From Protula sp. h YS-2021 (lineage: Eukaryota > Annelida > Polychaeta > Sabellida > Serpulidae): a DNA stretch of 64,000 nucleotides. The stretch is taken from the NCBI GenBank assembly GCA_949752745.1, contig OX457027.1, forward strand, positions 91,285,720-91,349,719, given 5' to 3'. The translations under genes were made by a program, and so were the position numbers. Positions 12,556-55,050 of the stretch are shown one piece after another. The notes beneath the pieces are model-generated. The model was given only the letters and a program-made list of their open reading frames with translations. It did not search any database and had not been told where the DNA came from. How positions within the stretch are numbered: the first letter of the stretch is position 1; each line of letters starts with the position of its first letter.

Positions 12556-12559
12556 GGCA

Positions 12560-14245: not shown

Positions 14246-14249
14246 GCAG

Positions 14250-24810: not shown

Positions 24811-25034
24811 TGCTGTGAAGAACAAAACAGTCATCTTACATTCTCTTTTTTGGCTTATATTTAGTTTATATTTTATTTTTGTTTTATTTAATTATATAGC
24901 TAATACCTGCATATGTATATATGTTTATAAACAGGTGAGACACAAGGGCGGAAAAAGAGGGACGAGAGGAAATTCCGAAGAAAAGGCTCAATGTACCGAC
25001 CCGTTATCGACCTTGCAAAAATCCGGCATCAAAA

Positions 25035-27223
25035 ATGACGTGTTCCCTGGAAGGACGCCCAGCGATAATCGGAAAGTGGTCGATGTGTCGTCATTTGCGT
25101 GCTAAGACAGTCGTCCATGCGAAATTTTCAGACGACCAGATTCAAAATGCACTGAAAACTTTTCGAAAGAGTAATATTGCGAGTGAAGGAAAACGCGTTT
25201 ATGCGTGTCGCAAATGCCCTGTAGAAAACTGTGTATGGAAAGGGCGGCGGCTTGATATGCATTTAAAGCGAAACCATTCTGAACTCGATGAAGCCGTTCG
25301 AAAAGACATGTATGCCTATGCTGACCTTCTTGATAGTAGCACTGTTATTACGATACCGTCACAGGCTCTTGATGACTTCATAGCTCGTTTCAAGCAGTGG
25401 CTAAGTACATCCGAAGGAGGCAAATTTATAGATGTGAATTATCCGTAACAGGCCACATTAATCAGATGGGCAATGAAGTGAAGAAGATTACAGAATTTGT
25501 TTTTAAAGATCGGCCATTTACAACTACTGACTTAAAATTGCTGCGGGTATGGACGCTGCCTGCTGAAAATGGTGGTATTATGGACTTTCTACACGAGCAC
25601 TACATGTATTCTACCATAAAGAATCACTGTGTATCTATGATAAACTTTGTGCGACAACTGCGTTTAAACAGGTCATTTTATCCCGAGATAACAACAAAAG
25701 AGTTAGACGAATGGACAATGGCGCAAACAAACACTTTAAAAACGTTAATAAAGGAGAGTAAAACAGAGCAGGCGTCACAGAAAAAGAAACTGGCAACAGC
25801 AGTCGGTGGTGGCGATATAACCTATGCAGATATTGCGAGATACCTTCAGAGCGCCCATATACAACGCACAATCTGCGCTATAAACGCATTCAAGGATACA
25901 GACAAAGTCACATCACATGAGTACGCACTCTACCAAAGCCATCTAATTCTAGCCCTACAGTGTTTGAACGCTAAACGAGTTATTGTTACCTTAACAAAAG
26001 AAGACATGGGAAACGCGCGCGCCTTGCGAGGTAAAGATGGGAAAGACGTAGTACTTATCAGTAAAGTTCAACACAAGACATCTTTAGCCTATGGTAATGC
26101 ACACATTTTTATGGCACCGTATTTCTTAGAAAAATTAAGAAAATGGATTTCAATACTCGTGCCAAGTTTACCCAACTATGAAAGCCGGAGTAACGAAATG
26201 AAATCTTTTCTATTTGCGTGGAAAAAGGGGACAGCGTTATTGTCCAGTGATGCGAATTTTTTCATAAACAAGGCGTGGCAACAGTTTTGTAGTGAAGAGT
26301 TAGGGCCCCGCAACAAAATAATAAGCGGACTGGTGCGGAAATGCCTGGTCTCGGCAGCAGAAAAAGACGGAATGCCACACGAGGATAGAAGTAAACTCAC
26401 GTGCCACATGGATCACTCATGAGAAACGGCGTCGACGTATTATGACGTGTCGGGTAAGGAACAGAGCAGTGTAGACACATACTTTACCGTGAAAAAGTTA
26501 ATAAATTCAGCTCTGGCTGAAAACGAAGTAGAGGGGTTTGTAGGACCACGAGAATGTGGCAACAGTGTGGAGAGTAGAGGTAGTGAGAATGCAAACGGAT
26601 CTATAGTTGAAGGTCAACGACGTACGAGTACAAATACAAAAACACCAACGACACAAAAAGCACCAGTTCCTTCACAACAAGATGTAGAAATACCCACATC
26701 AGTTTTAGCACGAAGTGTCAAACGTACAATTAACACTCCCAGAGATAATACAGATCATGAATGTATTTCGAAGGCAAAACACGTGAAATGTGAATTCTCA
26801 TCTCCTGAAAGGAAAATAATTAAAAAGTGTGATCACGCAAGTCGTCAGTTCTGTACAGATGAGTATATTCAGGATTGTCCTGTTATATTAGAAGATATAA
26901 GTGGTATTGTTCAAAAGTATGGAGCTGATAAATGTAGTGTCGATAAGTATCCGTTAAAAGACGCCGATGTGAAACAGGTCTCATGTATGTTTCCATCATG
27001 TGAAAATGAAATACAAGATGTCTCTCGTTTCATAACGAAATCTGTTTTGAATGTAGCAGGCGATTATGTTCAATGTCGTATAGCTGACAAGCTACCAATT
27101 AAAAAGGAAGACATTCTCAGTTTGTTTCACGGGAATAGTAGTTTGTTCCGGGTAAAATCTGACAGCCAAATTGTAAACATGGTACGAAACAAGATAAAAC
27201 GGGCAAGAAAATCGGCGGACTAG
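25035..27223 (+). pseudogene. Tyrosine recombinase of the virus-like block (broken)
   Basis: The ATG at 25035 opens a frame with a C2H2-like finger (CRKCPVENC ... H-x3-H, about residues 59-84). A one-base frame change near 25,420-25,450 leads to the recombinase frame, which runs to 27223 with a single TGA at 26420-26422. Catalytic features in order are: Arg in LNAKRVIVTLT, Lys in QHKTS, Arg in GLVRKC, His in TCHMDHS, and a Tyr pair in TASTYYDV (26438-26443). The stop falls between the His box and the nucleophilic Tyr, so the copy cannot make a full enzyme without readthrough. The ~250 residues after the Tyr are a low-complexity linker and a Cys-containing C-terminal region I do not recognise. 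Layout (zinc finger, core domain, RK and HxxH boxes) resembles Crypton or viral eukaryotic tyrosine recombinases. The likely job was integration or excision of the whole block. Confidence 0.75.
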
Positions 27224-27423
27224 TAATAATACATTAATGTTGCTTGTCACATTTAGATAAAAAGAGTCGATTGTTCTTTCACTGTTATGTTTTTTTTTGT
27301 TTTTGGTCCTCACTCCCCCCGGATATAAACGTTTGATATATATAGAAAAAGGGAGGGCTAGAAATACAGCTGCAGTACAATACTTTGACAGAAAATCTCG
27401 TACAGACCGCACAAAAAAAAAAC

Positions 27424-28000
27424 ATGGACAGGGCAGAACAAGAAATGGCAACTATGTTTAGACAGCTGCGCATATGTTCTTAAAAATTGATTCTAAACGG
27501 AACAGACAGCAATGGCGGAAGGAACTGAATGCCAGATGGATTGAGGAGTGTTTATTAGTTCCGAAAGAAGAAATAACTTATTGGTTTTTAGAAGAATGTA
27601 AAAAGCGTAATTTACCTGGAGACGAATTTAACATAAGTAATGCATTTAAAAAAATAAATAAAGAGTGGATGTTTGAAATGAAAAGATTAGTTGCAAGGAT
27701 ATTTATATACAGAGCTATGGAAGACATATTTAAGGACTGCTTTGCTATACATATTAACATCTAAAATTAACATTTAAGGCTCAAAGTCTACGTATTTGGT
27801 GGCAACACTTCAGTGACACGTATGAACTTGGACTTCAGAAAATCTCAAAACAAAATATTGTTCGAGATGTTTTAAGAGAATGTCGCAGGAGAAATCTACC
27901 GGAAGGTCGATTTGATATGGACGAAGCCTTTGATAAGGCATTAAATGAATGGAGTGATGACATAAAGAGTGTAGCTATGGTGATTTTCATAAGAACTTAG
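27424..28000 (+). pseudogene. Tandem ~95-residue domain array 1 (two units, unknown family)
   Basis: After an ATG at 27424 and a frame change near 27,470, unit 1 shows W-x3-LN-x2-W, VPKEEI, FLEECKKRNLPG, F-x-ISNAFKKINKEW and ends RAMEDIFKDCF. A second unit follows a TAA (about 27790-28000): W..., KISKQNIVRDVLRECRRR, NLPEGRFDMDEAF, KALNEW. The same unit, with the same junction motif (Y-R-x-M-E-x-x-F-K-x-C), forms array 2 on the minus strand at 31752-32660. The consensus is W-x(n)-NW, K-x-SKE, F-x-x-EC, LPG-x-x-F, D-x-AF-x-KAE-x-EW. It is helical and rich in charged residues. A TATATATA lies near 27334. I know no named family with this pattern; a DNA- or protein-binding helical module is only a guess. 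Confidence 0.6.
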
Positions 28001-29330
28001 GGTATGCACATACATTTCCCATAAAACAACGCCACAGGTTTATGCTTTTAAGTGTTATGTTCTTTTTAAAGTATATAATCCATGAGTTATGTTTACATGT
28101 GCTATAACATAATGTGAATATATTTAGGTTTTACGAGAGAATACATTTAATAACATATGCCGCTGTGAAAGGAGGGAGGGAGGGCGCCATTGCTGGATGA
28201 AAACTAATGTCACATTTTTTGTGTAGGGTAGCAAATTTATATATTTGTTGTTTTTTGTGCCTATTACTTTTATGACATGGAAGTCCCTTAACTTATATGA
28301 GTGTAAATTATGTACAAATCAGACCAATAAAAGGACATATATGAAACACATGCTGTTCGTGTTACATCATTGTTAGGGGGCGGGGGCGAGTTACCCCCTT
28401 TTTGATATATCGCTCGGACCAGGAAAAAGGTTTAAAGTGCGACGGACGGACGGACAGACAGACGGACATGGGACAAACCGAACCCCATAACCCCCCTCCT
28501 TGTTGCACATCTATACCATATATACTCTTCCTTTCCAGTAAGGTTTGGTGAAGATGCGATGAATGGTGCTTTGTTTTTTATATATATTTCGTCCTGACAC
28601 GACGAAAGTTTAAAGTGCGAGACGGACGGACGGACGGACACGGGACAAAATTGAACTCTCCGTCGCACACCATATATACTTTCTTACTGTAAGGCCTGGT
28701 AAAGCCCCAATGAATAGGTTTCAAGATATCGTCCTGACCAATAAAGAAAGGTTCACGAAGGACGGACGGACAGACCGATAGCAATAGCCTGCCGCCAATA
28801 TTGGCTGGGGACTAAACCAAAAAAGTGAACAAATTAAATACACAAAAAGAACTACCTCTCATGTGTTTTATTAATTGTTTATCTGAAAGCAGTATTAACA
28901 GCTCCTGCTATCTATTTAATTTTTAATCTAGATAATTTAAATACTCCAAGGGGGAAGACGGATGGCGGAGGTGAGAATGATCTCCATACGCTCCTTCTCC
29001 CTCTTCTCAACAGAAATGTAACTCCAACTAAAACCACTATGCAGTTTTGTAAAAAACAAATATATATACACAAATATGTAGACATTAGTCAATAATAAGG
29101 GTTAAGGCAAGCACCAGTAACCCGATACAGGGCCCCTCTATCTAGCTTATTTGTATTAACACCATCCGTATTTCATAACAAACCTAATAATGCAAATAAA
29201 AAATAATAGAATAAATTCTATAAATATATTGAAGGTTTACAAAATATAAAAACATATTTCTATTAAACTAAAACCTAACTGATGATCCAAATGGCTACCC
29301 CGACAGCATCAGCTTTGCCTGAGGCTCTCC
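28001..29330. repeat. Spacer with three ~115-bp GACGGACGG-type repeats
   Basis: Between about 28430 and 28800 a unit recurs: CATATATACT..., GTAAGGTTTGGTGAAG..., ATGAATGG..., then AAAGTGCGACGGACGGACGG. AATAAA near 28327 may end a transcript of the preceding array. The rest (28810-29330) is AT-rich with no gene. Confidence 0.7.
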
Positions 29331-29333
29331 ATG

Positions 29334-31167
29334 TCATTTTGCCCCCGAATGCTCGTTTACAGAACGTTTACGTATAATTGGCAACAATATTGATTTATTA
29401 CAACGTTTACGATAGCAAACAAATGTAATGAATATCCCAACACCACCCAATATTACTAAATTTAGAAACAAAAGTGCTCTTAGCACAAAAGTTACATGGT
29501 TTGACAGTTTACGAGGTTTCGCCATCAGTTCAGTTAATGTTGGAAGGATTTGTTTAAAGTGCTTTAATCGTATGTGTTCTACCTTACCTTCAAATAGTGT
29601 CCTATCTTCTTCATTGTTCCATTTATCAGGGGTAAAATTCACAAACGATAACTCGGCATTGAACTTTATTTGTTGTTCTTCAGATGAGCCTGCGATTCGA
29701 GTGAGAAATTTAAAGTATTTTGAGGTAGCCGAACAATTATTTTCAATTGGGATGAGGTAAACGTTTGAAATTTCAACTTGTCCAGTATTACTTGGACATT
29801 TTAAACTTGAATGCAGTAGAAATGAGCACAAATCCTTCAAATACGACAGGTACGGGTGGAAAATTCTAAACCTTTTTATGAAAGAATTGTTTAATTCTAT
29901 GCTTGTTTCTCAGAAATAGGGACAATAAAACAAGTAGGGTACGAGATCACATTGTACCAGGGAGAAACAATTTTGCATGCGGAACCCCATATGCACGGCA
30001 AAAATTCTTCTGACTGTATAAACGCAAAGTAATGTTCATCTTTCGATACTGCAAAATACGCAGATTCTAGAAGGTAGGTTGCACCTAACTGCAGTTGCCC
30101 ATCTGACATGGGCACTTGAATAGCTCGATATATATCGAACTGTTTATCTACATGTAATAAAGGTAATGCCACGACAATGTGGAAGCCATCTTGAATTGCC
30201 ACAACAGACGGGCGTATAAATTTATAGTACATTAATAAGCCATCTTCTGTAAGAGGGAAAGGTAGTTTATACTTTCCAGATATTTGTACGTTAATTTGTT
30301 CGAGTATATCTCTAAGTTCTGTTGGGCTGATTAAAATGGGTGATAACTGACCTTGAATTGATAAATGAATTTGAGAAAAAAGATCAACAATATTTAAACG
30401 GATTTGCCTTATGGAAGCTGTAACAACGTTAAAAATAGCCTGCAACCTTGATACAAACATGGTGTAAGTTCTGTCAGGGAACAACACTAGTGACGCTTCA
30501 TCATACAGATACATTAGTTGTCGATGTAACCTTCTTGTGGCGTTAGATAGCTTTTCTATAGCGTTGCGATTTATTTGAGCGTGAGTGTTAGTTTTGTTTA
30601 GTAATGTTACACTGTCGCTAAAGAGATTAACTAGTTGCTGTTGTCGTGACCCAACGTTACTTATAACTTTACGTAATTCATTAACGTTATGCTGCGTTGC
30701 TGTTCCGAATAAGAAATTAAGTAGGTTACCGACTGTCGGTAATACAGGCTTCGTTTGGTATGTATTGTATTTGGTGGTTAAAGCTCCAATTTCGTCAAAC
30801 AACACACCGATAGTTTCATATTCCTGGATAAATTGATTAGATTCTTGTTTCAATAAGTACACCATTTCCCGCCGTATATACTGGAATAAGTTACCATGCG
30901 CCTCGTTAACATAGATCAGAACTTGTTCATTCAAAGTCTGTACAGCTTCTTCGAAATTCTTAATTTCCACTCGTGTAGGTGCTTGCGACATGGGTTTAAG
31001 TCAATAGTATATGTTAATACCCATGAGCTGTAAGATGCGTAAGCGGCATTTTCGTAGAGGAAATATACTCCTATAGGCGATTGACTACCAACGCCCTTAG
31101 CACATGGCCAAACACAACCGCGAGTGTCACGGCTAGGTAAGTCATTGTTGAATACGAGCAACAGCAA
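29334..31167 (-). pseudogene. Baculovirus-F-like envelope fusion protein (broken)
   Basis: Three pieces in consecutive order on the minus strand. The N-terminal piece (about 31167-30995) has a GVYFLYENAAYASYSSW-type segment; the middle piece (30991-29897) has heptad-like helices and VGNLLNFLFGTATQHNVNEL, which matches the fusion-peptide and adjacent helix of Baculo_F/Env proteins; the C-terminal piece (from about 29915 to 29334) has a membrane span (ALLFLNLVILGGVGIFITFV) followed by a basic cytoplasmic tail. The pieces are in different frames, with changes near 30,995 and 29,905, so this copy is not expressible as one protein. No furin-type RxxR is evident before the fusion peptide. In intact relatives this is a class I fusion protein of the virion envelope, also carried by errantivirus-like elements. 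Next to a recombinase and a nuclease it argues for a DNA virus and not a retroelement. It shares strand with array 2 just upstream. Confidence 0.7.
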
Positions 31168-31751
31168 AAATTTCAGTCATTGTAAGTATCCCCCTCGGCC
31201 AAAAAAAGTGTTTCTCTTGGCTGTTGTTAGATTTTCCACCAAGCTTCTGTTTCTGTTATATTCAAGAGTTTTTTTTAACTTTATAACAGCTGCTGTGATA
31301 TCTGATGATTTCCACCATTCACCAGTTTCCTGTAACATCGGAGAAAAATCCACCACACATCAGCTCCTGATATTGATTCCGTGTTATGATTTTCTTTCCC
31401 AGATTCGATTTAAGAAATATTAAGTAAATTCTTTGAAAAAAAGATCATCAGCCAGTTGCAACCAAATATATAGCCTGACCGGTTACGATATGTCAAGAAA
31501 ATAAATAATTCAGACTTCTTGTTTTTCTTCTTCTTTTTGTTTGGGTTTTGGTAAACTCGGAATCAAGTAAAAGATGAGTTTCCACAATTTAATTTTAGAG
31601 ATGCCACACGTTCAGACTCTAAGCAAGAACTGTAAAGCCTGTTCGTCGGTTTGTTTTTTACGATTTAATCCTTTCGTAAATTAAAAAATAATTAGCAGCT
31701 ATCTTACGCTTCAAATAAATTGTAAAAAAGTCTTCTTTCCCGTGCCATCCC

Positions 31752-32660
31752 TTAGGGTCTATGTAGAAGAAGTGAAACTCCTGAAACATCTTGCTTCAGT
31801 TCGGAAACCCAGTCATTTTCTGCTTTTCTAAAAGCATTATCTATACGAAAGTAATTGCCAGGTAAAGCATGTTTTTCGCATTCTTTTAAAAATATCTTAG
31901 TAACAAACTCCTTTGAAATTCTCTGCTGTGCTTTTGACCAGTTCTCATCCAAATTTTCCCATAAACGATCGTGTTGTATAATCCTAGTAATATCCCAAAT
32001 CATCCACATAAGATAACATTTTTTAAACAACTTTTCCATAGTTCTATATGTATGCATTTGTATAACTAACTTTTCTATCTGTGGTCGCCATTCATTTTCT
32101 GCCTTTCTAAAAGCTTCTTCTATGCTGTATCAAAAGACTTTGAATATAAATTAAAAGTTTCGCACTTTTGGAAAAAGTACTCTATGACCTTTGTTTTTGG
32201 TAATTTGCTGCTTATTTTTAACCAGTTTTTACCAAGTTCAAACCGCCATCGAGTACGTGTGGCAAATGGTGGAATAGCAAAGGTCATACAGATTGCATAA
32301 AAGTGTTGAAATATCGTTTCATATTTCTGTAATGCCCAGAAGCCACTTGTTTTCTGCCTTGCAGAAAGCTCTATCTATATAAAAAAGGTGAGAGTAAAAA
32401 CCTCTATCTTCGCAAATTTGGTGAAATCCGCAGACAGTAGCTTCCTTTGATAATTTTGCACATGCTGCCACCCAGTTCTCATTTATTACCTCCCACCATC
32501 GACACATATTTTTTCCACGAGGAATATTTATAGCCACATGGGCAGCATAGTGGCTTTTAAAAATACTTGTGATTATCGCTTCATCTGATTCATTCCATGC
32601 TTTCTGGTTCTTTTGATTATGCTGTTCTAGTCATTAAGGTGTACTGACGCAATATAACCC
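31752..32660 (-). pseudogene. Tandem ~95-residue domain array 2 (three units, unknown family)
   Basis: Reading from high to low coordinates: a partial unit ends KAWNES; unit A (about 32590-32330) has WWEVINENW, KLSKEATVCGF, FYIDRAFCKAENKW; unit B (about 32320-32065, interrupted by a stop and a frame change near 32130) has LGKNWLKISSKLPK, YFFQKCE and AFRKAENEW; unit C (32057-31752) has WENLDENWSKAQQRISKE, FLKECEKHALPG and FRIDNAFRKAENDW. The unit junction motif YRTMEKLFKKCY equals YRAMEDIFKDCF of array 1 on the other strand. Units are quite diverged, so the duplication is old. Function unknown. Confidence 0.6.
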
Positions 32661-32972
32661 TCACACGTCTCGCCTGTCCTTAAAAAAACGATATAGGTAA
32701 CTAACTAAATGAATGTGTCCTCTCTCGGTGCTTCAGATACCTAGAACAATGCAAAACACTCGCTATACATGCATATGAAAGCACCAAGGAGCATTAGAAT
32801 TAATTTGTATTACTTTATTAAAGTAAAAAAAAAATACATTAGACAACAAAGATATGTGCATATAAAAAGGTAAATATCGAGATTTAACGACAGAGGTGAT
32901 TTTACTAGATATTCTTATATTTGTGTTTGATAGGCTTTAGCTTTTTGTTTGAAATTTTGTTCAGAGGCGAAA

Positions 32973-33666
32973 AATGACTAGAAAGCAACATATGGGTAAC
33001 AGTAGCTACAAAAATGAGGAGCTCTTTGTTGTTTAGGATCGTGAGTTGACAAGAGGAGAAATTCATGTTATCCATGCTTTTAATGATGAAAGATTTTCAT
33101 CCACAGTAATTAATATTCTTGCCTTTTACAGCGATTTGAATGAAACTGTTGAATGGATGTTTATAAACAGCTTAATGGGTTTCTTTCGGATAGTTTTCGT
33201 AGCTGAATACATCGGGCATAAACAACTTAGATATAACGGTACAGATGTGATACCGTACCAAAAATATAGTTTAAATTTGTCTCGGGAATCATATAAATCG
33301 ATCATATCGGCAATAGCAATTCTTTTCCCACAATTGTTTCAAGTGGCAATGAATAGCAAAAAAAGTAAATGTCTGCATTCTATCACATCTGCAAGTGATG
33401 TAGATTTGCATGCAAAAATCTCAAAACTGGTACCGTCTGTAAACATTAAATTCCTTATGATGTCTTTATAGTAAAACGAATTATTTAGTTTTGAAGACAC
33501 AGTGTATAATTTTTCACAATTATATGAAGTAGAAGAATTTGCTGACCAACAGCGGAAGTGTATAGATACAATGATGGAAAAATACAATATACAAGACAGT
33601 GTTCCAAAAACGTACGCGTTTTTAGCTTGTCTAGATTGTGATTCAAATGCCCCTAAACATTTTTAA
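32973..33666 (+). pseudogene. Unknown virus-block gene with in-frame stops
   Basis: One frame runs from the ATG at 32973 to the TAA ending at 33666, interrupted by TAG near 33034 and by consecutive TAG and TAA at 33466-33471. Sequence after each stop keeps coding character (for example FSFEDTVYNFSQLYEVEEF and QDSVPKTYAFLACLDCDSN), so I treat it as one broken gene of about 230 codons. No domain recognised. Confidence 0.5.
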
Positions 33667-33786
33667 AAGGATATAAAAAAAGATTGAGGTGGGTTTATCG
33701 GTCGTCTACTGTATAAACTTCATTATCGAAATGACAGAAAAATATATAATATACAAAATATTTTTATTCTTTTTTTGCTTAAACCA

Positions 33787-33832
33787 GGAAGACCACCCCC
33801 GCACACACACACAAACACACACACACACACCT
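33787..33832. repeat. Short (CA)n tract
   Basis: Imperfect CA dinucleotide run in the spacer between two virus-block genes. Confidence 0.7.
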
Positions 33833-33850
33833 CTACACAGTGTCATTCAA

Positions 33851-34334
33851 TTAACGTTCATAATCTTCAGGTAAACGAAGTCCATTTTTGTGGAGATTAT
33901 TGTGCGGCTGTTCTCTACCCTTGAGGGTTAAAAACACAAAACCACTGGAACGCCTATTCCTTTTAACGAAAGTTTTTGAATTAACTTGGCGAAATAATCT
34001 ATTCGTTTCGCAGTTCTTATACTTGTGACTAACAAGTGTTTCATCTTCTGCTGTAAATAAAATAGAAGCCTCGTACGAGCTGTTGGCAAAATGTACCCGA
34101 CTGAGCGTCATTATATCTATTGAATGGGATATTTCGTATAATATCATGAAAATAGTTGTCATAGAATTCACATTGATCAATATGTGACAGACGCCGAGTA
34201 CATTTCCTCCAACGTAAAACTTCACAAAACATATGTTCGTGTCTCGGAAGTAATCCATCTGATTGTTTTTCTAGTTGCGTTCTACATTTTATAATCGCCA
34301 CATCTAGCTTAACGTTGGCGTCATCTTCTAACAT
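33851..34334 (-). pseudogene. Unknown virus-block gene, one frame change
   Basis: The N-terminal part (34334 down to about 34110) starts at an ATG-less frame with EDDANVKLDVAIIKC and a Cys-rich WRKCTRRLSHIDQCEF stretch. The C-terminal part (about 34110 to 33851) continues in a second frame with RVHFANSSYEASILFTAEDE and a basic RNRRSSGFVF segment, ending LRLPEDYER. Each frame loses coding character where the other gains it. About 160 codons in total. No family recognised. Confidence 0.5.
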
Positions 34335-34339
34335 TTTTC

Positions 34340-35161
34340 ACCAACATCTGAAATTACAGGCAATAATTCAGGTCCAGAAATAGCACTAGAATTAAAACAC
34401 TTATCGTGAACTTGTATTTCAGTTTTTCAATGGTGCTAAACATTTTATACGTTTATGTGCTATATCCAAGATATATGGAGACTTTATTTTTTTCGCTGTA
34501 TAATTACACCCTCCTCTAAACAAGTATTCATAACAAGTACAAAAATGCGTATAATTTGATGGATTAAATGACGCGATCATTTTATGTGTTTTAAAATTTG
34601 CTACTTTTCACTGCTTTATTCTTAAAACTAGCCTCATTGTATACACCTGATATGATACTATCAACCGTAATTGAATTATTGTGTTCGTTCGCATTTATAC
34701 TATGTAGGATGATTTGACAGTGTTCATCGAGTACCAAGCAGCCATTGCTCGCAAATTTATCTTCAATTCATAAATACCCCGTGGCAGATTTATATTTATG
34801 AGACATAACATCTATGTCATAGTGAGCATGTAAAAAAATTCGCAGTGTTATTCATTCTATATTTCGCTATGGTTGCTTTCATATCCGTTTTTGTAACTTC
34901 CTGAAGAAAATAATTTAATGTATTTAGATTTACTTTATTTTGAACATTTATAGCTCCAGTTAAGCCCATCAGTCTGGCCGTATTTTCTGGGATAATTGTG
35001 CAACTGAAAACTTTAATTTTTTCGAATACAATAATATATCTATGGTTAGCTTTCTCTGTGCATTTCCACATGTTACGATCTTCATCAAACCCTACATTTG
35101 ACGATGACCTATGAAATGTGCCTTTAGCTACCTTATGGCCGTATTCGCGCAACACATCCAC
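34340..35161 (-). pseudogene. Unknown virus-block gene, several breaks
   Basis: Reading down from 35161: VDVLREYGHKVAKGTFHRSS, then IIPENTARLMGLTGAIN, a frame change in a T-run near 34830, an in-frame TGA near 34771, LVLDEHCQIILHSINANEH, a frame change near 34590, a Cys-rich NYTHFCTCYEYLFRGGCNY block, and another change near 34425 before the end at about 34340. All parts are on the minus strand in order, which fits one gene of about 270 codons. The Cys block could bind metal. Not recognised. Confidence 0.45.
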
Positions 35162-35341
35162 CCGTAATTTTTTTATATAAACTCCGGCATTTATATGTAA
35201 TGGCGACCAGTTTTGTGACCGTGGTACGTTGTGTGCAATATGCGTTGCCTGAGATCGTTGCAGTCAACATCCATGATTCACTTTTTTGTCTATTGTCTAT
35301 TTTAATTGATTTCAGTTTTAATTGAGTCTTCCTATAGCAAC

Positions 35342-35404
35342 AGAACCGACACAATATGAGCCTAACGGGTTGCCGGTGTCGTTAAATAAATTAATCAATC
35401 AATC
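35342..35404 (+). repeat. Intergenic motif, copy 1
   Basis: ACACAATATGAGCCTAACGG then GTTGCCGGTGTCGTTAAATA, followed by AATTAATCAATCAATC. It belongs to a set with copies at 35553 and 42411 and weaker ones near 42547, 42793 and 42975. Confidence 0.7.
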
Positions 35405-35552
35405 CCAACAAGGTCTTAGAATTTCTAAAAGAGATTAACCTGTATTCGTATGCGTAGATTAACGCTCAGTTCAATTTTTTAATATATTTAAGATTTTATC
35501 TTGTACTGACTTTTAAGCAGTAAAGTATAAATACGATCAAGCTATCAGGAAT

Positions 35553-35619
35553 GACACAATATGACCCGCAATAGGTTGGCGGTGTCGTTAAACCAACCAA
35601 ATAATTAACTAACTAACAC
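35553..35619 (+). repeat. Intergenic motif, copy 2
   Basis: ACACAATATGACCCGCAATA then GGTTGGCGGTGTCGTTAAAC, followed by CAACC and (TAAC)n. GGTTGG and CCAACC can pair as a stem. It lies ahead of the gene at 35839. Confidence 0.7.
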
Positions 35620-35838
35620 CTTTTTTGTCATGGTAAAGAAAGAAACATCAGATAGCTTGTCATGGGGTGCCAGGAGAAAACTTGATATTTATGCCAAACT
35701 TTAATGCATGCTTTGACTAAGATACGATTTATCAATACTGCGTTTATGTAATTTAGTTGCATTTTATGTTTGACGATTACAATAAGTGGAAGAATTAGAA
35801 GAAACAAACTTATCAGGAAACAACAGCAACAACAACAA

Positions 35839-36726
35839 ATGGTTAAAATGAGTTATATTGTTCGCATATCAAAGCAATTTAAAATCAGAATAGGCGTAGA
35901 CAGATTCGGAAAATTTATAAAAATGGAATTTGGTAAAACTAAATTGTGCTTAACACATAATGAATGGAAACAGTTAAATTCAAATAGAGCTTTACTGTTC
36001 CATAAATTAGATATTGGTGAAGAATTTTACCTAACGCTAAAACACACGAAATATGAAAATTTAGAAATCGGGGTTCGTGGTGCTGAGATATATTTGCAAC
36101 AGAATCATTATCAAGATCACGATGTGAAGGATACTACAAACAACATCACATTGCATTTATCTGACTGGTGCCCGTTGTGCAAAAAAATTAGTCTCATTAA
36201 CGAACCCCTATCATACAAGACCATCTATATGGATGTTTATGGAAAATGGCATTTAATTGAAGAAGCCGCAATAAATTTATCGGAAATTCGTCCTATAAAT
36301 CAAAGTATTAAATGTAGGTTTCTGAAACCAATGGCACCAGAGCGCATCGTCTATGAATTATGGGCTTATTTAATATGTAAACGGGTCTTAGAGCTTTCAA
36401 AAGATACATGTGGGGGATGTATTCTCCACGATCCTAGGCGCACTGCACATTTCTACGGTTGTTCAAAACCCTGGCACGATTTAGTGCTAAAATACTTTGA
36501 TGATGCAAAGGTATCAAGTGATCACCTTGAAGCTGCTTTAAGTTGTTTAAGCGAAGCTTTGTGTTGGAATGTCACAATTCCAAGAGCTCTAAATGGCAAT
36601 CCTATTTTAGACGACAGCTATGTACGTGACATTGTGAATAATCGTGGAGGATTTCCTGTATGTTATACTTATGCTAACCACAGAGACATTATTTATATAC
36701 GATTATTTGAATACCTTCTATTATAA
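35839..36726 (+). CDS. Virus-block protein with PC4-like N-terminus and Cys/His cluster
   Basis: This is the longest intact frame of the block, about 295 codons from the ATG at 35839; the frame is open further upstream, but the leading residues there are a glutamine run without an ATG. Residues 1-60 (SKQFKIRIGVDRFGKFIKME ... LTHNEWKQL) look like the PC4/Sub1 ssDNA-binding fold, which has two beta strands and a terminal LT-x-x-EW helix. Later come W-C-P-L-C-K-K and, near residue 190-212, CGGC-x-x-H-x5-AHFYGC, a possible zinc site. PC4-like proteins bind melted or single-stranded DNA in transcription and replication, so a replication or late-transcription role is plausible but inferred. A mobile-element or viral relative with a similar Cys/His pattern is expected; I cannot name one firmly. 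Confidence 0.6.
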   Translation: MVKMSYIVRISKQFKIRIGVDRFGKFIKMEFGKTKLCLTHNEWKQLNSNRALLFHKLDIGEEFYLTLKHTKYENLEIGVRGAEIYLQQNHYQDHDVKDTTNNITLHLSDWCPLCKKISLINEPLSYKTIYMDVYGKWHLIEEAAINLSEIRPINQSIKCRFLKPMAPERIVYELWAYLICKRVLELSKDTCGGCILHDPRRTAHFYGCSKPWHDLVLKYFDDAKVSSDHLEAALSCLSEALCWNVTIPRALNGNPILDDSYVRDIVNNRGGFPVCYTYANHRDIIYIRLFEYLLL

Positions 36727-36750
36727 GAAAATATGTGTATTTTTTAATGA

Positions 36751-36882
36751 ATGCGTCCAACTACAGCCTTCATACTGGCTGAACAGGACAACCAAAATGA
36801 AGACCTAATTGCGTATAGCATAAAAATAGTTTTCAAAGATTTCTTTAAATTGGTTTATGACCAGCTGTTTACATGTCATTAG
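36751..36882 (+). CDS. Small ORF, 43 residues, unknown
   Basis: ATG-initiated and follows the PC4-like gene by 24 bp on the same strand (MRPTTAFILAEQDNQNEDLI...). No family recognised; may be chance or a fragment. Confidence 0.3.
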   Translation: MRPTTAFILAEQDNQNEDLIAYSIKIVFKDFFKLVYDQLFTCH

Positions 36883-37365
36883 CTTTCGTTGGGGATAAGG
36901 GGGGGGAGGGGGTTGCGAATGACAGAAGAGCAAGAATAGTCGCTATTGTTAGAAAAGATGTACTTTTAAATAAAACAATTGATTACATAATTTGTAACAC
37001 TTCACCCATCTCTTTCTCTTACTTTTCTTTTTTTAATAACTTTGTCTCCTCTTCCTTTTGACATTGTATAATGTACATTTGCGAAATATATTTATACAAG
37101 CGAGTCTTGGGTAAAAACTTTATATGGCCATCACGTGTCATAAAACGAAAAGAAATAAAGGTGTATTTGCCACATTTGTTATTATATATTTTTATCTTAT
37201 AGTCGTATATACATGTAGCAGTTCCTGTAAAAAAATTTACCTCCTCATTAAAACATGCTAATTCTGTATTTTATGAAGGTATTATTTTTTGCAACTATTT
37301 TTACCCAAGAACTTCTTTGATATACATGGTTTTAACTTACCTTGATTTTAACTTGTAGCATTGTC
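36883..37365. other. Spacer in the virus-like block, no gene seen
   Basis: G-rich tract at 36899-36913, otherwise AT-rich. Confidence 0.5.
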
Positions 37366-37367
37366 TT

Positions 37368-38219
37368 CTAGTCACTGATGTATTGATATGCAGGGAGCAA
37401 AAAAGTCAATCTCTGTAAATGTTTTCGCTTTTCCCCTATGTCGGTGGTGTCTATTCCAATGAGATTCATGAAGTTACTTGTTCCATCATCATTTTTAATG
37501 TATGAAGTTTTGGATGATACACTGATTGCAGTGTGATATTGGTACATCATAATGCAACATATACACATACGGTTAAAATGATACTTCTTTATCTCTGTTT
37601 TGTGATGTGTGGGCTCATTAGTACCACCACTAATATAAAGGCACATGGTGCGAATAACTTTCGTAAAAATGTCAGGATTGGACGTCGAGAGGTTAGCATT
37701 AAGTGTTATCATACGTAAGAGCACCGGTGATATCATAGCAGATCCTGCTCTTTTGACATGCGGATACAACGTACAAAATACATAAGAATCATTTCGTCGG
37801 CATGTGGCTTCAAGATTGCGTTTTAGCACTTCAATCTCTTCCTCTTTTATCTCTTTTTGTAGCTTATTCCCATACATATCTAAACTAGGCTGTAGGAGTG
37901 TTTTTCATCTATTCGGGTTGATTTGTTCTTCTATGTCGTAAATATTATAAATAGCTGGCTTGTGTTCTATTGAACACAGTGCGGGTGAAGTAGATAGTAC
38001 ATCTTCTTTGATTTTTTTACTTGCTTCGGGATCATTATCTAATTCTACCCTGTCCAAGTATCTGCAAATTTCATTAAAAAACAAATGTGTCTCACCTTCA
38101 CTTTCTCTATTGTATGTATTTTCTCCTTTCGGGGTTTTAATTATACACTCGTTTGTATATTTGTCGCGATTAATTCGAATTGGACAGCAAATATCAGCTG
38201 TTCCATTTACATCAACCAT
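37368..38219 (-). pseudogene. Unknown virus-block gene with one in-frame TGA
   Basis: One minus-strand frame runs from the ATG at 38219 (MVDVNGTADICCPIRINRDK) to 37368, with a single TGA at about 37905-37907 and continuous coding character on both sides (DIEEQINPNR before, LLQPSLDMYGNKLQ after). Length about 283 codons. Acidic and Lys/Glu-rich segments (KLQKEIKEEEIEVLKRNLEA) suggest a helical middle. No domain recognised. Confidence 0.55.
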
Positions 38220-38393
38220 ATTTAGTTATATGAAAAAATGCTCATCAACTAAGTCATTATCAAAATTGAATGAAAACTGTTCTTTTTCCATAATAATTCT
38301 ATTTTACGTGCTGCAGCGAAATAAATTTTGTATATAGTTGCAGCAGATTTTATTGGTTGATATTTTCCCGTCCTACTTTGCCTCTGAAAGATA

Positions 38394-39175
38394 ATGACTT
38401 CTTCTCAACCAACACCCGGAGGAGTTCAAAATATATAGATTCAGAGGTTTATAGCACAACATCTACTCGATAATCCTGTGCCCTCCAAGCTGCAGCTGCA
38501 TGAAGTGCGAACATTAAGTGAATTAAGAATATACAAAACAATACAACACACATTTTCTCTGAATGCATATTGGTGGTTTTAATTACACGAAGGTGGTGTT
38601 CACGCTGGAAGATTTAAAATATTCGTTTTTCCACAGGTATATAAAGATAAAACCCATGACATCGATTAAAATGTAGCTTTAATATATTCATTTATTAGTG
38701 TTAAAGACCTTGATACAAACTTTTGTGCAAATTACATTTCAATAAAAATGTTTATTCCAGAAATGCTCTGCCCGATAAAGTGTATAAATCAAACGCGTCC
38801 TTGTTTAAAATTGAATGTGAAACAAAAACTCCCCTTTTAGATGTATTTAAAAATACGAATAGGTATAGAGAGTACATAGAAAAACTCTACAATATACCCA
38901 TATATATATATATATGTGGTCGTTTTTGTGAACGGAAAAATGATAATATTTGTATTGGATTGGCAACCCACGATGATTTGATCCTGTATGAAATCTTTTC
39001 TTTTCAAGAAGACTGTTGCATCTGGGAGCGTGTTACTAAATGCCAAAAACAAAATACGTATTTTAAATTAATAACACCTCATATAGCGTTTGAAATTGTA
39101 TTTTACTTGCATTGGATGGGTAATAGATGGTATCGTGCTATTTTCACCATACTTAGTTGGATAAATAAAAGTTAA
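38394..39175 (+). pseudogene. Unknown virus-block gene with three in-frame stops
   Basis: From the ATG at 38394 (MTSSQPTPGGVQNI) the same frame passes TAG at 38436, TAA at 38580 and TAA at 38667, with good coding character between them (LLDNPVPSKLQLHEVRTLSE; GGVHAGRFKIFVFPQVYKDK; FISVKDLDTNF). A frame change near 38,750 leads into the open part ending at 39175 (RNALPDKVYKSN ... WMGNRWYRAIFTILSW). About 260 codons. The C-terminus is hydrophobic and Trp-rich. No family recognised. Confidence 0.5.
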
Positions 39176-39249
39176 AATATAGATATATTTCTTATCTAAT
39201 AACTGTTTTTTTTAAAACACAATCTGCGCTAGTTCTTGTTTTCAAAGCT

Positions 39250-39858
39250 ATGGCAACACATGAAGAGAATACAAACAAATTAAATATTAAAGTACGCATG
39301 TATAGAGAAGCTGCAAAAGCCATTTTAGAGAATAAATCAATCAATGTCAATAAATCAATGTCACTAACTGCGCAAGATGTTCATGTATTAAAAATTTTTA
39401 CACAAAATATTAATAAAAAACAAAGAGACTTAAATCATGAAACTGTTTGCCCTGGAATTAAATCTAAGATTGAAGAAGAGGAGGTTGCAATGAAAAGGTC
39501 TGGGGATTTGATTCCGAGAATTAAAAAATTAAGTAAAGAGAGTAATAGGCTTGGTACGAATTCTCGAAAGATAGAAAAAGTGAAAAAACATATAGACGAT
39601 TTCTACGACGCCATCGAACAGTCTAATGAAGTTTATAATCTTTATGATGAAATTTGTAAATCGGAAGATGTTGCTGGTTACATGACCCCGATCAACTCAT
39701 CGGAAGCTGATATACTAGAGAGAGTTGTACAAGATGTTTATGGAAAGTTTTCGTCCAACATAGCGGATCAAATAGCTAGGATCATATGGACAGATTTTTG
39801 CCACCAGTCCCTACTTCTACCATTGATCAGTTGTAACTTTGTAACAAGTTATTATTAA
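39250..39858 (+). CDS. Coiled-coil virus-block protein, unknown
   Basis: ATG at 39250, 202 codons, intact. Lys/Glu-rich with long predicted helices (for example KSKIEEEEVAMKRSGDLIPR and RKIEKVKKHIDDFYDAIEQS). The last ~20 residues (SLLLPLISCNFVTSYY) look out of character; another frame reads LPPVPTSTIDQL to a stop there, so a late frame change is possible. It is followed by the nuclease after 20 bp, as in a compact viral cluster. Confidence 0.5.
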   Translation: MATHEENTNKLNIKVRMYREAAKAILENKSINVNKSMSLTAQDVHVLKIFTQNINKKQRDLNHETVCPGIKSKIEEEEVAMKRSGDLIPRIKKLSKESNRLGTNSRKIEKVKKHIDDFYDAIEQSNEVYNLYDEICKSEDVAGYMTPINSSEADILERVVQDVYGKFSSNIADQIARIIWTDFCHQSLLLPLISCNFVTSYY

Positions 39859-39878
39859 ATGGTTGTGAGTTAAATACT

Positions 39879-40746
39879 ATGCATCCAACCAAAAACAACG
39901 ATGTCCCAAACTATTTGGCTTTCTGTGTCCCAAATATTGCAACATATGTGGGATCAAGGAAAAATACAAGACAGTGAAAACAAAGGGAGTGAAAAAGACC
40001 ATAGAAGAGATAAAGCAGGTCAACAGCGCATTAGCAGTGAAATCAGGTCGAAAGGTCGGACCATCCATTCGTTTTGTGATCCATTTAATCTTAAATCTGT
40101 TCCTTATATACGGGAAAGTGAGAGAAATGTGATTAGCCTATTAAATTTAATTTCAAAAATAAGATATTTAATAGATAACGGTGTCACATATGAGCTACAG
40201 CTCTCCCTTCCTCTGAGCGTCTTAACTGGCGATGAAACATGCGACTCATATAGGGTTTTTGGGACTATAGATAAAATTCTTCTCGACGACACTGGTGGAC
40301 TAGTAGTTGTTGAATTAAAAACACATATGAAAACATGTGCCACAGGTTATCCCAGGGTTGAGAAAATATGGGAAAGATATGCCCAAAAGCAAGTTAATGT
40401 TTATGTTTTAATGCTAGATCGTTTCATACAGGCTATTAATAACAGATCAGAAATTGTAAAAAACCTGTTTACTGATTTGGTTCCCTCAAGGCAAATATAC
40501 AATCTTATTTACCCACACCGTTCGTTAGACAAAGTCTACCTTGAGTTAGAAAGTGAAATTGCTCGTCTCTCACATCGGTTAAAACGTGCCACACGAGGTA
40601 TGGCTTTCCACTGTTCCCAGACATTAGCTTTACTTAGTATATATTTTGGTCAGTCGGCAATTCCAGCATACGCAACAAAAGTACGAATTTCACAAACACT
40701 CACACAGAAACAACTAATAGACATAGTACCATGGCAAATACGTTAA
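39879..40746 (+). pseudogene. RecB/Cas4-type PD-(D/E)XK nuclease of the virus-like block (N-terminal frame breaks)
   Basis: The core is intact in the frame beginning at 39901: GTIDKI (Asp at codon 124), VVVELKT (Glu 138, Lys 140) and a Q-x3-Y motif (Q164, Y168). Together these form the D, ExK and QxxxY signature of RecB/Cas4-like and lambda-exonuclease-like enzymes. The N-terminus seems to start at the ATG at 39879 (MHPTKNNDVPNYLAF) and reaches the core frame through two one-base frame changes near 39,970 and 40,080. Such nucleases process DNA ends in replication and recombination of large DNA viruses. The gene overlaps the next one by 16 bp. It is either mildly decayed or affected by assembly indels. 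Confidence 0.75.
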
Positions 40747-41186
40747 TGAGCAAGGTCTCCTTTATACAATCCAAATGGAAATATATTGAACTCGGCGTTA
40801 AAAATATGTCTACTATGTCACCCTTTGATTTATTACACAACACATCTCTAAATGGATTGGTACAGTTTATAGAGCAATTAAATTATTGTTTAGAAGATTT
40901 AACATCTGGTCATAAAGACGTTGTGTACAAACTTGTGCAAGGACGCGAAGATACACCTCTAAATATAACAGTACGATATGCACATGGCGTCGTATGGCTA
41001 GGACTTTGACGTCTAATTAAGGGATTAAAATTTGTAACTTCTAATTTTTCTGCATCCAATAGAAGAGAAGTCAAAAGTAAATATTTCAGTTTGCTATTAA
41101 TACCACCCACGCACCTCTATCATTGCACTTACGGTCTCAATATTGCTTCAGATCTGCTACATAATGTATTTTATATTTGTTTTTGA
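40731..41186 (+). pseudogene. Unknown virus-block gene with one in-frame TGA
   Basis: The ATG at 40731 is in a good context (ACCATGG) and overlaps the end of the nuclease gene. The frame meets TGA at 41007-41009 but stays coding for 58 more codons (RLIKGLKFVTSNFSASNRRE ...). It then ends in a TGA (41184-41186) that overlaps the ATG of the next gene (TGATG). That junction supports the view that the longer frame was the original gene. No domain recognised. Confidence 0.5.
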
Positions 41187-41755
41187 TGCATTCGGATATA
41201 ACCTACAAATTAAACATTGGAATATATCGACGTCATATCAATAGTGTTTCTTGTGAAGATATTGAAAATAATCCTATTATATCTCATATACCTAGATTAA
41301 ATGAGCTTTTAATCTATTGTGCTGAATTACAAAGCTTCCCAGTCGTACCTCCCGATTTAGCTGGGTTTATCTGTTCAACAAAGCACAAAGTTGTTCAAGA
41401 AGACATGGAAATACTTACACCTGGTCCCGATAATAGATGTCATATTAATAGTTTAGAGGATATTAGGGCTTGTATTTTATATAAAATAAGTAATTTGAAT
41501 ATAGGTATTACAGATGAGGAAAAACAAAACACAAGAGTACCATGTAGGTGTTTATTATATAGCGGAGGATTTTTTTCTGAATTTTTTTTCCAAAGTTCTT
41601 ATCTAACGCGCGCATGTTTACTTATTCATGTGTTGCTCACAAAGAGAGGCCAAGAAAAAATCGAACAAGGAAGTGGGTGTGATGAGCACAAACGTGTTTT
41701 TCGTAAGCATGTTAACGACTGTCGTAAGGTATTAGAAAAGCCCGGCTTATGTTGA
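41186..41755 (+). CDS. Unknown virus-block protein, 189 residues
   Basis: ATG at 41186 overlaps the stop of the previous frame. Intact. It has several Cys and His residues (NRCHINSLEDIRACILYK; RVPCRCLLYSGG; CDEHKRVFRKHVNDC), perhaps metal-binding. No family recognised. Confidence 0.5.
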   Translation: MHSDITYKLNIGIYRRHINSVSCEDIENNPIISHIPRLNELLIYCAELQSFPVVPPDLAGFICSTKHKVVQEDMEILTPGPDNRCHINSLEDIRACILYKISNLNIGITDEEKQNTRVPCRCLLYSGGFFSEFFFQSSYLTRACLLIHVLLTKRGQEKIEQGSGCDEHKRVFRKHVNDCRKVLEKPGLC

Positions 41756-41941
41756 TGTATAGGCGCAATTTGCTGTCCAATAGAACCCGGTTATGTCAAT
41801 AAGAGAGGCGAAGGCCCTCTCACAACATTGAACATCTGTTTTCATTACATGTGCTTACAGAATAAAAATGTGAAGATGTAGAGGTTTCGTAGAATTCCAC
41901 GTTATTCTGTCTGCACGCTCTGTGAACTTAAATAGGAAAAA

Positions 41942-42334
41942 ATGGCAAAAAATTCAAACGAGATTACAAACTGTGACACGAGAGTGATGTTCGAAAATTG
42001 TGTGAGGAGCCTTCTCCACACCAAGACCATTGAGGTGGAGGACGAGTATAGGCTTTGCATACCGGGGAAAATCCGGTTTGGAAGCTCGGCACTGAAAGTA
42101 GACATGTACAGAATTAGCCAATGTTTCCCGAAAAGAAACATTTGTGTATTGTTCGATCATTTCGAAAAGCTGGATTGTCCTGTCAAGACGTTTGGGGAAA
42201 AGCCTGTTGTATTTCCTTCCGATGAATGCACGAGAAATGATGACGACGAAACAGACGAATGGCTAATGGTGGAAGGGCGGAAGGCCCTCAAGGCTCTGAA
42301 TGCGGCATGTTTCGTCGAAGAAGTTTGGCCATGA
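41942..42334 (+). CDS. Unknown virus-block protein, 130 residues
   Basis: Begins with a good ATG (AAAAATGGC) and is intact. More GC-rich than its neighbours. Acidic stretch NDDDETDEW near residue 105. Last recognisable gene of the block on the right side. Function unknown; it may instead be an unrelated gene. Confidence 0.45.
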   Translation: MAKNSNEITNCDTRVMFENCVRSLLHTKTIEVEDEYRLCIPGKIRFGSSALKVDMYRISQCFPKRNICVLFDHFEKLDCPVKTFGEKPVVFPSDECTRNDDDETDEWLMVEGRKALKALNAACFVEEVWP

Positions 42335-42410
42335 GGATAGACTTTTCAACAAAAAAAACACAAAACCCAGTTCTGTTCACTAGAACTGACGTGTCACTGA
42401 CATGTTCTGA

Positions 42411-42478
42411 TACAATGTAACCCGCTAAGGGTTGGTCGTGTCGTTGAACAAATCATATAGCTAACTAACTAACTAACT
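42411..42478 (+). repeat. Intergenic motif, copy 3
   Basis: ATACAATGTAACCCGCTAAG then GGTTGGTCGTGTCGTTGAAC, followed by (TAAC)n. Weaker relatives occur near 42547-42567, 42793-42840 and 42975-43030. Confidence 0.7.
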
Positions 42479-44390
<1,912 letters not shown>

Positions 44391-44437: not shown

Positions 44438-44839
44438 ATGTAAACCACACACCAAATAAGTGCCCACCATGCTTTTCATTAAACTGTGGTCATAAAAATA
44501 AAAACATTCCGATAGCACTTTGTTGTATTGACTTCTTTCCCAGCAGCCCAGCAGCGAATTGATCGATGCCAAGCTAAAGCATTTGCGTGGTTTGTTAGCT
44601 AAATATAGTGCCGTGACCTCGATTATATTTTGTAATGCCATCAAGCGGATTGCGGGGTTTACAGAAAGAATAGAAAATAATATTAGTTTCACCTCTAAAT
44701 GTGTTTTACCTTCAGCCCATTTAGCTACAAGTTACATTGAATATGAAAACCGCTGTATCTCCAGAAAAATAACTTGTTAAAAAAGCGCTCCTCTCAGAAT
44801 CGCACAAGCTATAACCGATTTTCGAGATCAACCAAGTGT

Positions 44840-46826: not shown

Positions 46827-47025
46827 TTTTTTTTTTGCCTTTTTTCCAGTAAATCGCTGCATGGCTGCCGGCTCGTATATTGGTATATGTTCAGCTTGGT
46901 TTGTGTGACGTGTGTTTGTTTGTTTGTTTTACTTGTTCCGTCTCTTGATTCAAAAGAGTGCTGCTGTATTTCACAAGAGATGATAGTTCTTACTGTAAGC
47001 ACATTGGTAGTTGCCATTATGTAGA

Positions 47026-54772: not shown

Positions 54773-55050
54773 GTTGTAGCAGCACTGATTATCTTCCAAA
54801 AAAGTACAAACAGAATTTTAAAATTTAAATAAAACCCACACGTGACTCGTTCATTAGATAACTATTAATATGCGATTTTCAATTTCAAACGTGTTTTCTG
54901 TTTTCCTCTAAATGATCCCATCCACTGCTGTATCTGTAAAGTATTTATATGAATCATCCATAGGACCTGACCTATAAAGTATTTATCTCTGAATGTTATT
55001 ATCATATAAACAAGTTCACCCCTTTTTGTACTTAACGAGACTACAAAAGT

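What the first reader, a model, noticed from the sequence alone, without database searches (positions are those of the whole stretch)
25035..42334. Decayed endogenous large-DNA-virus-like block with recombinase, F-like envelope and RecB/Cas4-type nuclease
Seen: a ~17-kb stretch of densely packed, intronless, AT-rich frames on both strands that differ from the host-type exons around them. Recognised: a tyrosine recombinase with its Arg/Lys/Arg/His/Tyr set, a Baculo_F-like fusion protein with a membrane anchor, a D/ExK/QxxxY nuclease and a PC4-like protein. Known: such a mix occurs in large dsDNA viruses and virus-like giant transposons, not in retroelements. Inference: a tyrosine recombinase may have served for integration, giving a virus or transposon type not matching those I know. 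No capsid protein, DNA polymerase or packaging ATPase was recognised in the window.
Basis: partly seen in the sequence, partly recalled or inferred. Interest (0 to 1): 0.9.

Follow-up and report, generated by a model that had tools for sequence, protein, structure and literature searches.

The report
Relic of integrated herpesvirus-like giant element
The stretch looks like a broken, rearranged piece of a herpesvirus-like DNA virus at least 140,000 bases long that sits in an animal's chromosomes in two fuller copies, with its own likely DNA-inserting enzyme and a baculovirus-type fusion protein, which would link herpesviruses to giant jumping genes.

Summary
The block is ORF-dense (26 ORFs >=100 aa; shuffles mean 2.6, maximum 7) with a Baculo_F gene (E 2.4e-13). 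In the host's own genome (863 Mb) its recombinase, F and PC4-like genes recur together in two fuller elements on C4 and C6, alike at sampled points over at least 140 kb. A genome search for herpesvirus terminase gave two matches, one in each element (E 1e-11); both also carry an uninterrupted family-B DNA polymerase frame. The window copy is the recombinase/F end (23,525-32,458) joined in inverted order to an internal piece (32,667-43,194). Three copies share one right end beside the recombinase. Best reading: an endogenous herpesvirus-like virus or giant transposon that inserts with its own tyrosine recombinase and enters cells with an F-type fusogen.

The parts
23525..32458 (-). Segment A: the recombinase/F terminal segment of the element, reversed relative to the C4 copy (C4:99,966,160 down to 99,957,119)
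   Evidence: blastn 86-95% identity to L106 and L086/L087; end at 23,525 shared with C4 and C6 to within one base
24939..27220 (+). Broken recombinase gene (zinc-finger-like N-terminus, putative catalytic core, long C-terminus) in 3 frame pieces; unbroken 767-aa homologue L106:1478-3778(-)
   Evidence: tblastn 91-96% of the pieces to L106; whole-genome search
27462..27997 (+). Repeat-domain ORFs (two units of a ~90-aa family)
   Evidence: blastp between ORFs E down to 1e-10; alignment A1; homologues in L106
29337..31176 (-). Broken F-type (Baculo_F) envelope gene with membrane anchor, in at least 3 frame pieces
   Evidence: PF12259 E 2.4e-13; PDB 9w4c E 1.5e-4; P0001 79%; C4/C6 copies 91% over the main piece, 76-79% over the C-terminal piece
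31755..32630 (-). Second array of the same repeat-domain family, opposite strand; it runs to the edge of the inversion junction
32459..32666 (.). Inversion junction between segment A and segment B
   Evidence: blastn breakpoints
32667..43194 (+). Segment B: internal segment, same sense as C4:99,891,996-99,903,174
   Evidence: blastn 90% to L105, 92-95% to L094, 80-89% to L101; 38,212-42,331 is inferred from collinear spacing, its C4 counterpart was not read
33037..33468 (+). ORF, 86% to L105:8371-8832
34820..35263 (-). ORF fragment, 88-100% to a 317-aa ORF in L094
35752..36723 (+).
   Evidence: no PC4 profile hit
37371..38225 (-). Gene with one in-frame stop; the part 37,371-37,904 is 77-85% to L094
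39169..39855 (+). ORF, unknown
39874..40743 (+). Putative PD-(D/E)XK (RecB/Cas4/Exo5-type) nuclease
   Evidence: weak
40638..42331 (+). Three further ORFs (40638-41006, 41165-41752, 41936-42331), unknown
   Evidence: no Pfam family above cut-off

Best explanation
The block is a rearranged, decaying partial copy of an endogenous herpesvirus-like dsDNA virus (or giant transposon) of at least 140 kb. Shown: the host genome holds two fuller, nearly identical copies (C4 about 99.826-99.966 Mb, C6 about 47.024-47.167 Mb) with a herpes-type terminase, a family-B DNA polymerase, a Baculo_F fusion protein and a large recombinase-like gene beside one fixed end. Inferred: the zinc-finger tyrosine recombinase cuts and joins at that fixed end to insert the genome into chromosomes; the polymerase and nuclease replicate and resolve the DNA; the terminase fills a herpes/HK97-type capsid; the F-type fusogen mediates entry (no gB was seen, but gB was not searched for). 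The window copy inserted the same way at 23,525, then suffered inversion, large deletion and frame breaks.
For: Terminase DNA_pack_C: 2 matches in the genome, one in each element, over cut-off, 0 of 14 control genomes; the ORF scores PF02499 E 2.8e-14 and PDB 'Tripartite terminase subunit 3' E 5e-14 (that this is the herpesvirus enzyme is recalled). Family-B polymerase E 3.1e-26 plus exonuclease domain E 2.1e-11, uninterrupted 1,669-aa frame in both copies. F and recombinase within 10 kb at 4 places. C4 and C6 98.7-100% alike in four paired stretches of 3.9-9 kb and 95-99.8% in left-hand samples outside a repeat region, down to C4:99,826,001. Three copies share one right end to within one base; C4 and C6 flanks beyond it show no match. 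The unbroken recombinase frame abuts that end.
Against: Capsid hit sub-threshold (PF03122 E 0.0034, 15.4 bits, cut-off 25) and without a PDB match. The recombinase has no profile or fold support (a poor model gave no fold match). No terminal or target-site duplication was found, and the left end is not located. 27 of 31 distinct ORFs scanned from the copies and their surroundings reach no Pfam cut-off, and the polymerase's best PDB matches are polymerase delta, ahead of UL30-type entries, so kinship to known herpesviruses is distant. Coding cover of ORFs >=100 aa is only 0.47 and 0.43 in two inner stretches (L103, L104). Most of the 112 F matches have no recombinase match nearby.
Confidence: 0.78

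Rival explanations
1. A mirusvirus-like or other Duplodnaviria lineage rather than a true relative of Herpesvirales; such viruses also pair a herpes-like terminase with an HK97-type capsid and family-B polymerase (recalled).
For: Polymerase resembles polymerase delta somewhat more than UL30-type entries; most scanned genes have no herpes match.
Against: The only PDB matches of the terminase at E <= 1 are three sequences of tripartite terminase subunit 3; PF02499 over cut-off. No mirusvirus sequence was compared.
Confidence: 0.15
2. A Teratorn-like composite in which a DDE transposon, not the recombinase, moves a herpesvirus genome.
For: Giant size, herpes-type terminase, multiple copies, precise right end; the left end is unseen and about half of the element was not read.
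Against: No DDE or piggyBac family among the ORFs scanned (93 block ORFs, 31 ORFs from the copies); the three right ends are not at TTAA; the recombinase gene sits next to the fixed end.
Confidence: 0.08
3. A naldavirus/nimavirus-type endogenous virus with F, YR and a nuclease.
For: Endogenous nimaviruses use C2H2-bearing tyrosine recombinases and are giant integrated elements (PMC10871703 passages); F proteins are baculoviral.
Against: Herpes-type terminase present; no telomere repeat in the window or at the right ends. Nimaviral core genes were not searched for.
Confidence: 0.03
4. A patchwork of unrelated host transposons (for example an errantivirus env plus a Crypton) lying together by chance.
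For: F-like genes are numerous (112 match rows) and recombinase-core fragments are dispersed.
Against: Same neighbours at mostly 86-95% DNA identity and in the same local order in two other places; no RT or integrase family among 93 block ORFs and no LTR-like repeat.
Confidence: 0.01

Closest known systems
Teratorn (medaka; piggyBac-alloherpesvirus fusion, ~180 kb; PMC5601938 seen in search listing only, PMC10175614 passages)
   Same: Giant herpesvirus-derived element in germline chromosomes with polymerase and terminase genes and several copies
   Different: Teratorn moves by piggyBac; here a large recombinase-like gene abuts the right end, no piggyBac was seen in what was scanned, and the fusogen found is Baculo_F-type
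Endogenous nimaviruses (Majanivirus and others; PMC10871703 passages)
   Same: Large endogenous virus with its own zinc-finger tyrosine recombinase used for integration
   Different: They insert in telomere repeats or 28S rDNA (one group in AT repeats by a DDE enzyme); no telomere repeat at the three right ends seen here (rDNA not compared), and this one has a herpes-type terminase
Malacoherpesviridae and endogenous relatives (recalled, not compared)
   Same: Herpes-type terminase and polymerase, invertebrate hosts
   Different: No tree or gene-by-gene comparison was made; an integrase and an F gene would be unusual (recalled)
Baculovirus F protein family (PF12259)
   Same: F gene meets the Pfam cut-off, with an anchor
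   Different: Carried by a herpesvirus-like element, not a baculovirus or errantivirus
Crypton transposons (PMC3212892 passages)
   Same: Core motif order of the recombinase (recalled)
   Different: The gene lies in a >=140-kb virus-like element; no profile match
Meld19810 (PMC11071296, Figure 7 legend seen)
   Same: Animal virus contig uniting a tyrosine recombinase with virion genes
   Different: Adintovirus-like, with a primase-helicase; no herpes terminase is mentioned in that legend

Membership tests
Herpesvirales-like (herpes branch of Duplodnaviria) | Herpes-type terminase ATPase/nuclease | tested here: met
Herpesvirales-like (herpes branch of Duplodnaviria) | Family-B DNA polymerase | tested here: met
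Herpesvirales-like (herpes branch of Duplodnaviria) | Herpes (HK97-fold) major capsid protein | tested here: inconclusive
   PF03122 E 0.0034 on a 1,218-aa ORF, below cut-off; no PDB sequence match
Herpesvirales-like (herpes branch of Duplodnaviria) | Genome of about 124-295 kb | tested here: met
   C4/C6 alike at sampled points from C4:99,826,001 to 99,966,160, at least 140 kb; range from PMC10175614
Herpesvirales-like (herpes branch of Duplodnaviria) | Capsid protease, portal, triplex and gB genes | not tested
   No family search was sent for them; the genome search answered 5 of 43 requests
Teratorn | piggyBac transposase and TTAA junctions | tested here: not met
   no such Pfam hit in the ORFs scanned; right ends in 3 copies not at TTAA. 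Only about half of the element was read and the left end is unseen
Tyrosine recombinase | R-K-R-H-Y active site in a YR fold | tested here: inconclusive
   motif order read by eye; no profile, hhalign or fold support
Baculovirus F fusion proteins | PF12259 over cut-off, signal peptide and anchor | tested here: met
   E 2.4e-13 window piece, 1.6e-16 in L086; anchor and leader read by eye
Endogenous Nimaviridae | Insertion in (TAACC)n | tested here: not met
   no telomere-like repeat in the window or at the three right ends printed; left ends unseen
Endogenous Nimaviridae | Nimaviral core genes; 28S rDNA insertion | not tested
   no search made
Maverick/adintovirus | 15-40-kb size and retroviral-type integrase | tested here: not met
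   size at least 140 kb; no rve hit in the ORFs scanned
Errantivirus/Metaviridae with env | Reverse transcriptase, integrase and LTRs around env | tested here: not met
   no such hits among 93 block ORFs; no LTR-like repeat

The most novel reading that the evidence does not exclude
A lineage of herpesvirus-like animal viruses has made chromosomal integration a regular part of its life cycle by acquiring its own tyrosine recombinase, and uses a baculovirus-type F protein as its fusogen. It has spread recently in this host's genome (two near-identical copies, with different right flanks, whose recombinase, F, polymerase and terminase frames are unbroken) and has shed recombinase fragments that now form small dispersed repeats.
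Probability: 0.5. Interest if true: 0.92.

Novelty: new variant of a known kind. Interest (0 to 1): 0.82.

Why it matters
Most herpesviruses do not endogenize (abstract start of PMC5822658, listing), and the known giant herpes-transposon, Teratorn, uses a piggyBac transposase. An independent herpes-like element with its own recombinase at a fixed end and an F-type fusogen would show a second route from virus to giant transposon, with recent copies from which integration sites, age and host silencing can be measured directly.

Tried and rejected
Protein database searches: recombinase piece 0 of 2,364 candidates at E <= 0.01, PC4-like ORF 0 of 499 at E <= 1, F piece 2 of 1,624. Viral-contig scans with F, PC4-like, nuclease and recombinase pieces found no relative, nor did the prokaryote genomes with P0001 or the phage records. 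A degenerate recombinase-motif scan of viral contigs gave one locus, L084, not examined further. Structure models of the recombinase piece (pLDDT 43.7) and P0001 (39.0) were too poor; the one fold search was meaningless. hhalign of the recombinase piece to Xer/Fim/lambda Int: no better than shuffles (the piece lacks the Tyr end). Rejected: telomere-targeted nimavirus type, errantivirus env, chance patchwork. My first guess that the left end lay near C4:99.85 Mb was wrong: the apparent loss of similarity came from an offset shift at a repeat region (corrected). That no such element was seen in print rests only on the listings. PMC12440569 passages did not bear on it.
Full report
What is in the window. 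The block is unusually rich in reading frames. I scanned 93 chosen ORFs between 24,800 and 43,096 against Pfam, of 148 ORFs >=50 aa listed for 24,000-47,000. Baculo_F at 29,900-31,000(-), E 2.4e-13, is the only clear match. Its closest protein is P0001 (639 aa, 79% identical, from an unnamed 3.1-kb contig), then a Centruroides sculpturatus protein at 28%. Alignment with P0001 and the frames show that the window F gene runs over at least three frames; P0001 has a leader and an anchor, read by eye. The recombinase gene is broken by one frame change and one in-frame stop. The nuclease motif is found in 1 of 671 ORFs (0.05 expected in shuffles, pattern chosen after the fact), but its family hits are weak. 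The PC4 label found no profile support.

The host genome. When genome search answered, the window was placed at C4:91,285,720-91,349,719 of an unnamed 863-Mb genome in 218 contigs. Of 111 flank ORFs scanned (109 of the 120 listed and 2 LINE frames), hits were ankyrin repeats, UPF0172 (EMC8/9-type, recalled), BIR, RING, and LINE endonuclease and reverse transcriptase domains. That, and the genome size, points to an animal. A mollusc is my guess from recalled repeat types, not a result.

Other copies. The F piece has 112 match rows (lower bound). The two best after the window itself, 91%, are at C4:99,958,619 and C6:47,159,654 with unbroken 627-aa frames. The PC4-like ORF has 33 match rows; the only high ones outside the window are 91% at C4:99,895,193 and C6:47,096,174 (plus their two N-terminal pieces at 85%), 63.4 and 63.5 kb from those F genes. 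The recombinase has 40 match rows: unbroken 769-aa frames at C4:99,962,478 and C6:47,163,497, the window, and mostly broken or short pieces elsewhere, with one distant (34%) match in a long open frame at C7:32,416,374. F and recombinase matches lie within 10 kb of each other at 4 places: C4, C6, the window, and C2:79.91-79.92 Mb, where both are broken. Most F matches have no recombinase match nearby.

Map. Window 23,525-28,729 and 28,570-32,458 match C4:99,966,160 down to 99,957,119 in reverse. Window 32,667-33,636, 34,374-38,211 and 42,332-43,194 match C4:99,891,996-99,903,174 forward. The window copy is therefore a terminal segment joined to an internal segment by an inversion. The C4 sequence between the two segments (about 54 kb) and all to the left of the internal one found no long match in the window where sampled (L102, L103, L104, L125-L139 in part). 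Short matches of 29-89 bases link window 44,593-44,775 with L103, L131 and L133; I did not explain them. Window 38,212-42,331, with the nuclease, was not compared because its C4 counterpart was not read; its spacing (4.1 kb against 4.5 kb) suggests that it belongs.

Ends and size. C4, C6 and window agree up to the same place beside the recombinase, C4 and C6 for one base more than the window; beyond it C4 and C6 show no match, and the window's only match is an 80% hit of 208 bases to the C6 flank at window 21,175-21,381, a dispersed repeat by my reading. Leftward, C4 and C6 stay alike at sampled points to C4:99,826,001. At 99,816,001 no match was found in the C6 stretches tested. The left end is therefore not mapped, and the size is at least 140 kb. 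C4/C6 identity is 99.93% (9 kb), 99.65% (4.1 kb), 100% (3.9 kb) and 98.7% (5.2 kb); 95-99.8% in other left samples; and about 75-95%, with many cross-matches, in a repeat region near C4:99.850-99.856 Mb. Different right flanks argue for two insertions rather than one segmental duplication; the left flanks are unseen. Coding cover by ORFs >=100 aa was 0.73, 0.83, 0.47, 0.43 and 0.85 in five inner stretches (L101-L105), so the copies are not uniformly dense.

Core genes. PF02499 (herpes DNA packaging) gave 2 matches in the genome, one in each element. The ORF L136:1321-2781 scores E 2.8e-14 in Pfam, and its only PDB matches at E <= 1 are three sequences named tripartite terminase subunit 3. The polymerase ORF (L138, from C6) scores E 3.1e-26 for DNA_pol_B and 2.1e-11 for its exonuclease domain, in an uninterrupted 1,669-aa frame in both copies. 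Of 18 match rows the other 16 are short pieces on C2, C9 and C11, which I take mostly for host exons; two lie about 143 kb from the broken C2 recombinase and may be another relic. PDB matches of the polymerase (21 sequences) are polymerases delta and alpha and entries named DNA polymerase or UL30; delta ranks first. A 1,218-aa ORF shows a sub-threshold herpes capsid hit and no PDB match. Of 31 distinct ORFs from the copies and their surroundings scanned, four reach a Pfam cut-off: F, terminase, polymerase, and a BIR ORF outside the mapped element. The long ORFs of 1,166, 1,074, 1,003, 1,001, 719, 650 and 648 aa do not. Not every ORF in the fetched stretches was scanned.

Mechanism. Shown: gene content, a common right end, several copies, decay of the window copy. 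Inferred: the recombinase inserts the genome at that end; the terminase packages DNA into a herpes/HK97-type capsid; F mediates entry. The recombinase class rests on motif order (recalled) and on the C2H2-plus-YR design reported for endogenous nimaviruses (PMC10871703, passages). Tests of it by profile, hhalign and fold were negative or uninformative.

Comparison. Teratorn is the nearest idea: a ~180-kb herpesvirus fused with piggyBac (PMC10175614, passages). This element shares the herpes core genes found and the giant size, but shows no piggyBac in what was scanned and no TTAA at its right ends. Searches of the held papers listed no herpesvirus-like element with a tyrosine recombinase and a Baculo_F gene, judged from titles and abstract starts; subscription papers are mostly missing from that library.

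Verdict. Real, virus-derived, and more interesting than the finding claimed; new variant of a known kind (endogenous herpesvirus-like giant element).

Noticed in passing
own genome, for example C1:59,990,704, C1:6,336,011, C2:67,762,973, C10:18,257,572, C3:104,438,481: Eight dispersed pieces covering only residues 362/364-501 of the recombinase at 82-84% identity, in frames of 169-180 aa, plus further pieces of the same part: a possible small repeat family that carries the recombinase core
   Followed up: no
own genome, 112 F match rows: Many F-like genes of 28-46% identity with open frames of 600-700 aa, some in near-identical pairs; they probably belong to other elements
   Followed up: no
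own genome, PC4-like ORF matches of 24-32%: More than 20 distant homologues, many with open frames of 293-306 aa, suggest further related elements
   Followed up: no
C2:79,775,792-79,921,182: Polymerase pieces, F pieces and recombinase pieces over ~145 kb, mostly broken: possible older full-length relic
   Followed up: partly
C4 about 99,849,800-99,856,600 and C6 counterpart: AT-rich repeat region with direct and inverted repeats that differs in length between the two copies
   Followed up: partly
window 44,593-44,775: Short (29-89 base) matches to L103, L131 and L133 inside the C4 element, outside the mapped segments; unexplained
   Followed up: no
L143 (C6:46,992,000-46,996,500), ORF 3609-4187: BIR-domain ORF (E 2.8e-19) outside the mapped element; the window also has a BIR-like ORF at 54,542-54,817 (placed by eye; BIR hit)
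   Followed up: no
window 47,011-50,838: LINE with endonuclease and reverse transcriptase frames
   Followed up: no
window 12,550-14,259 and 3,016-4,177: 41-bp tandem array (about 42 copies) and ~137-bp satellite-like array
   Followed up: no
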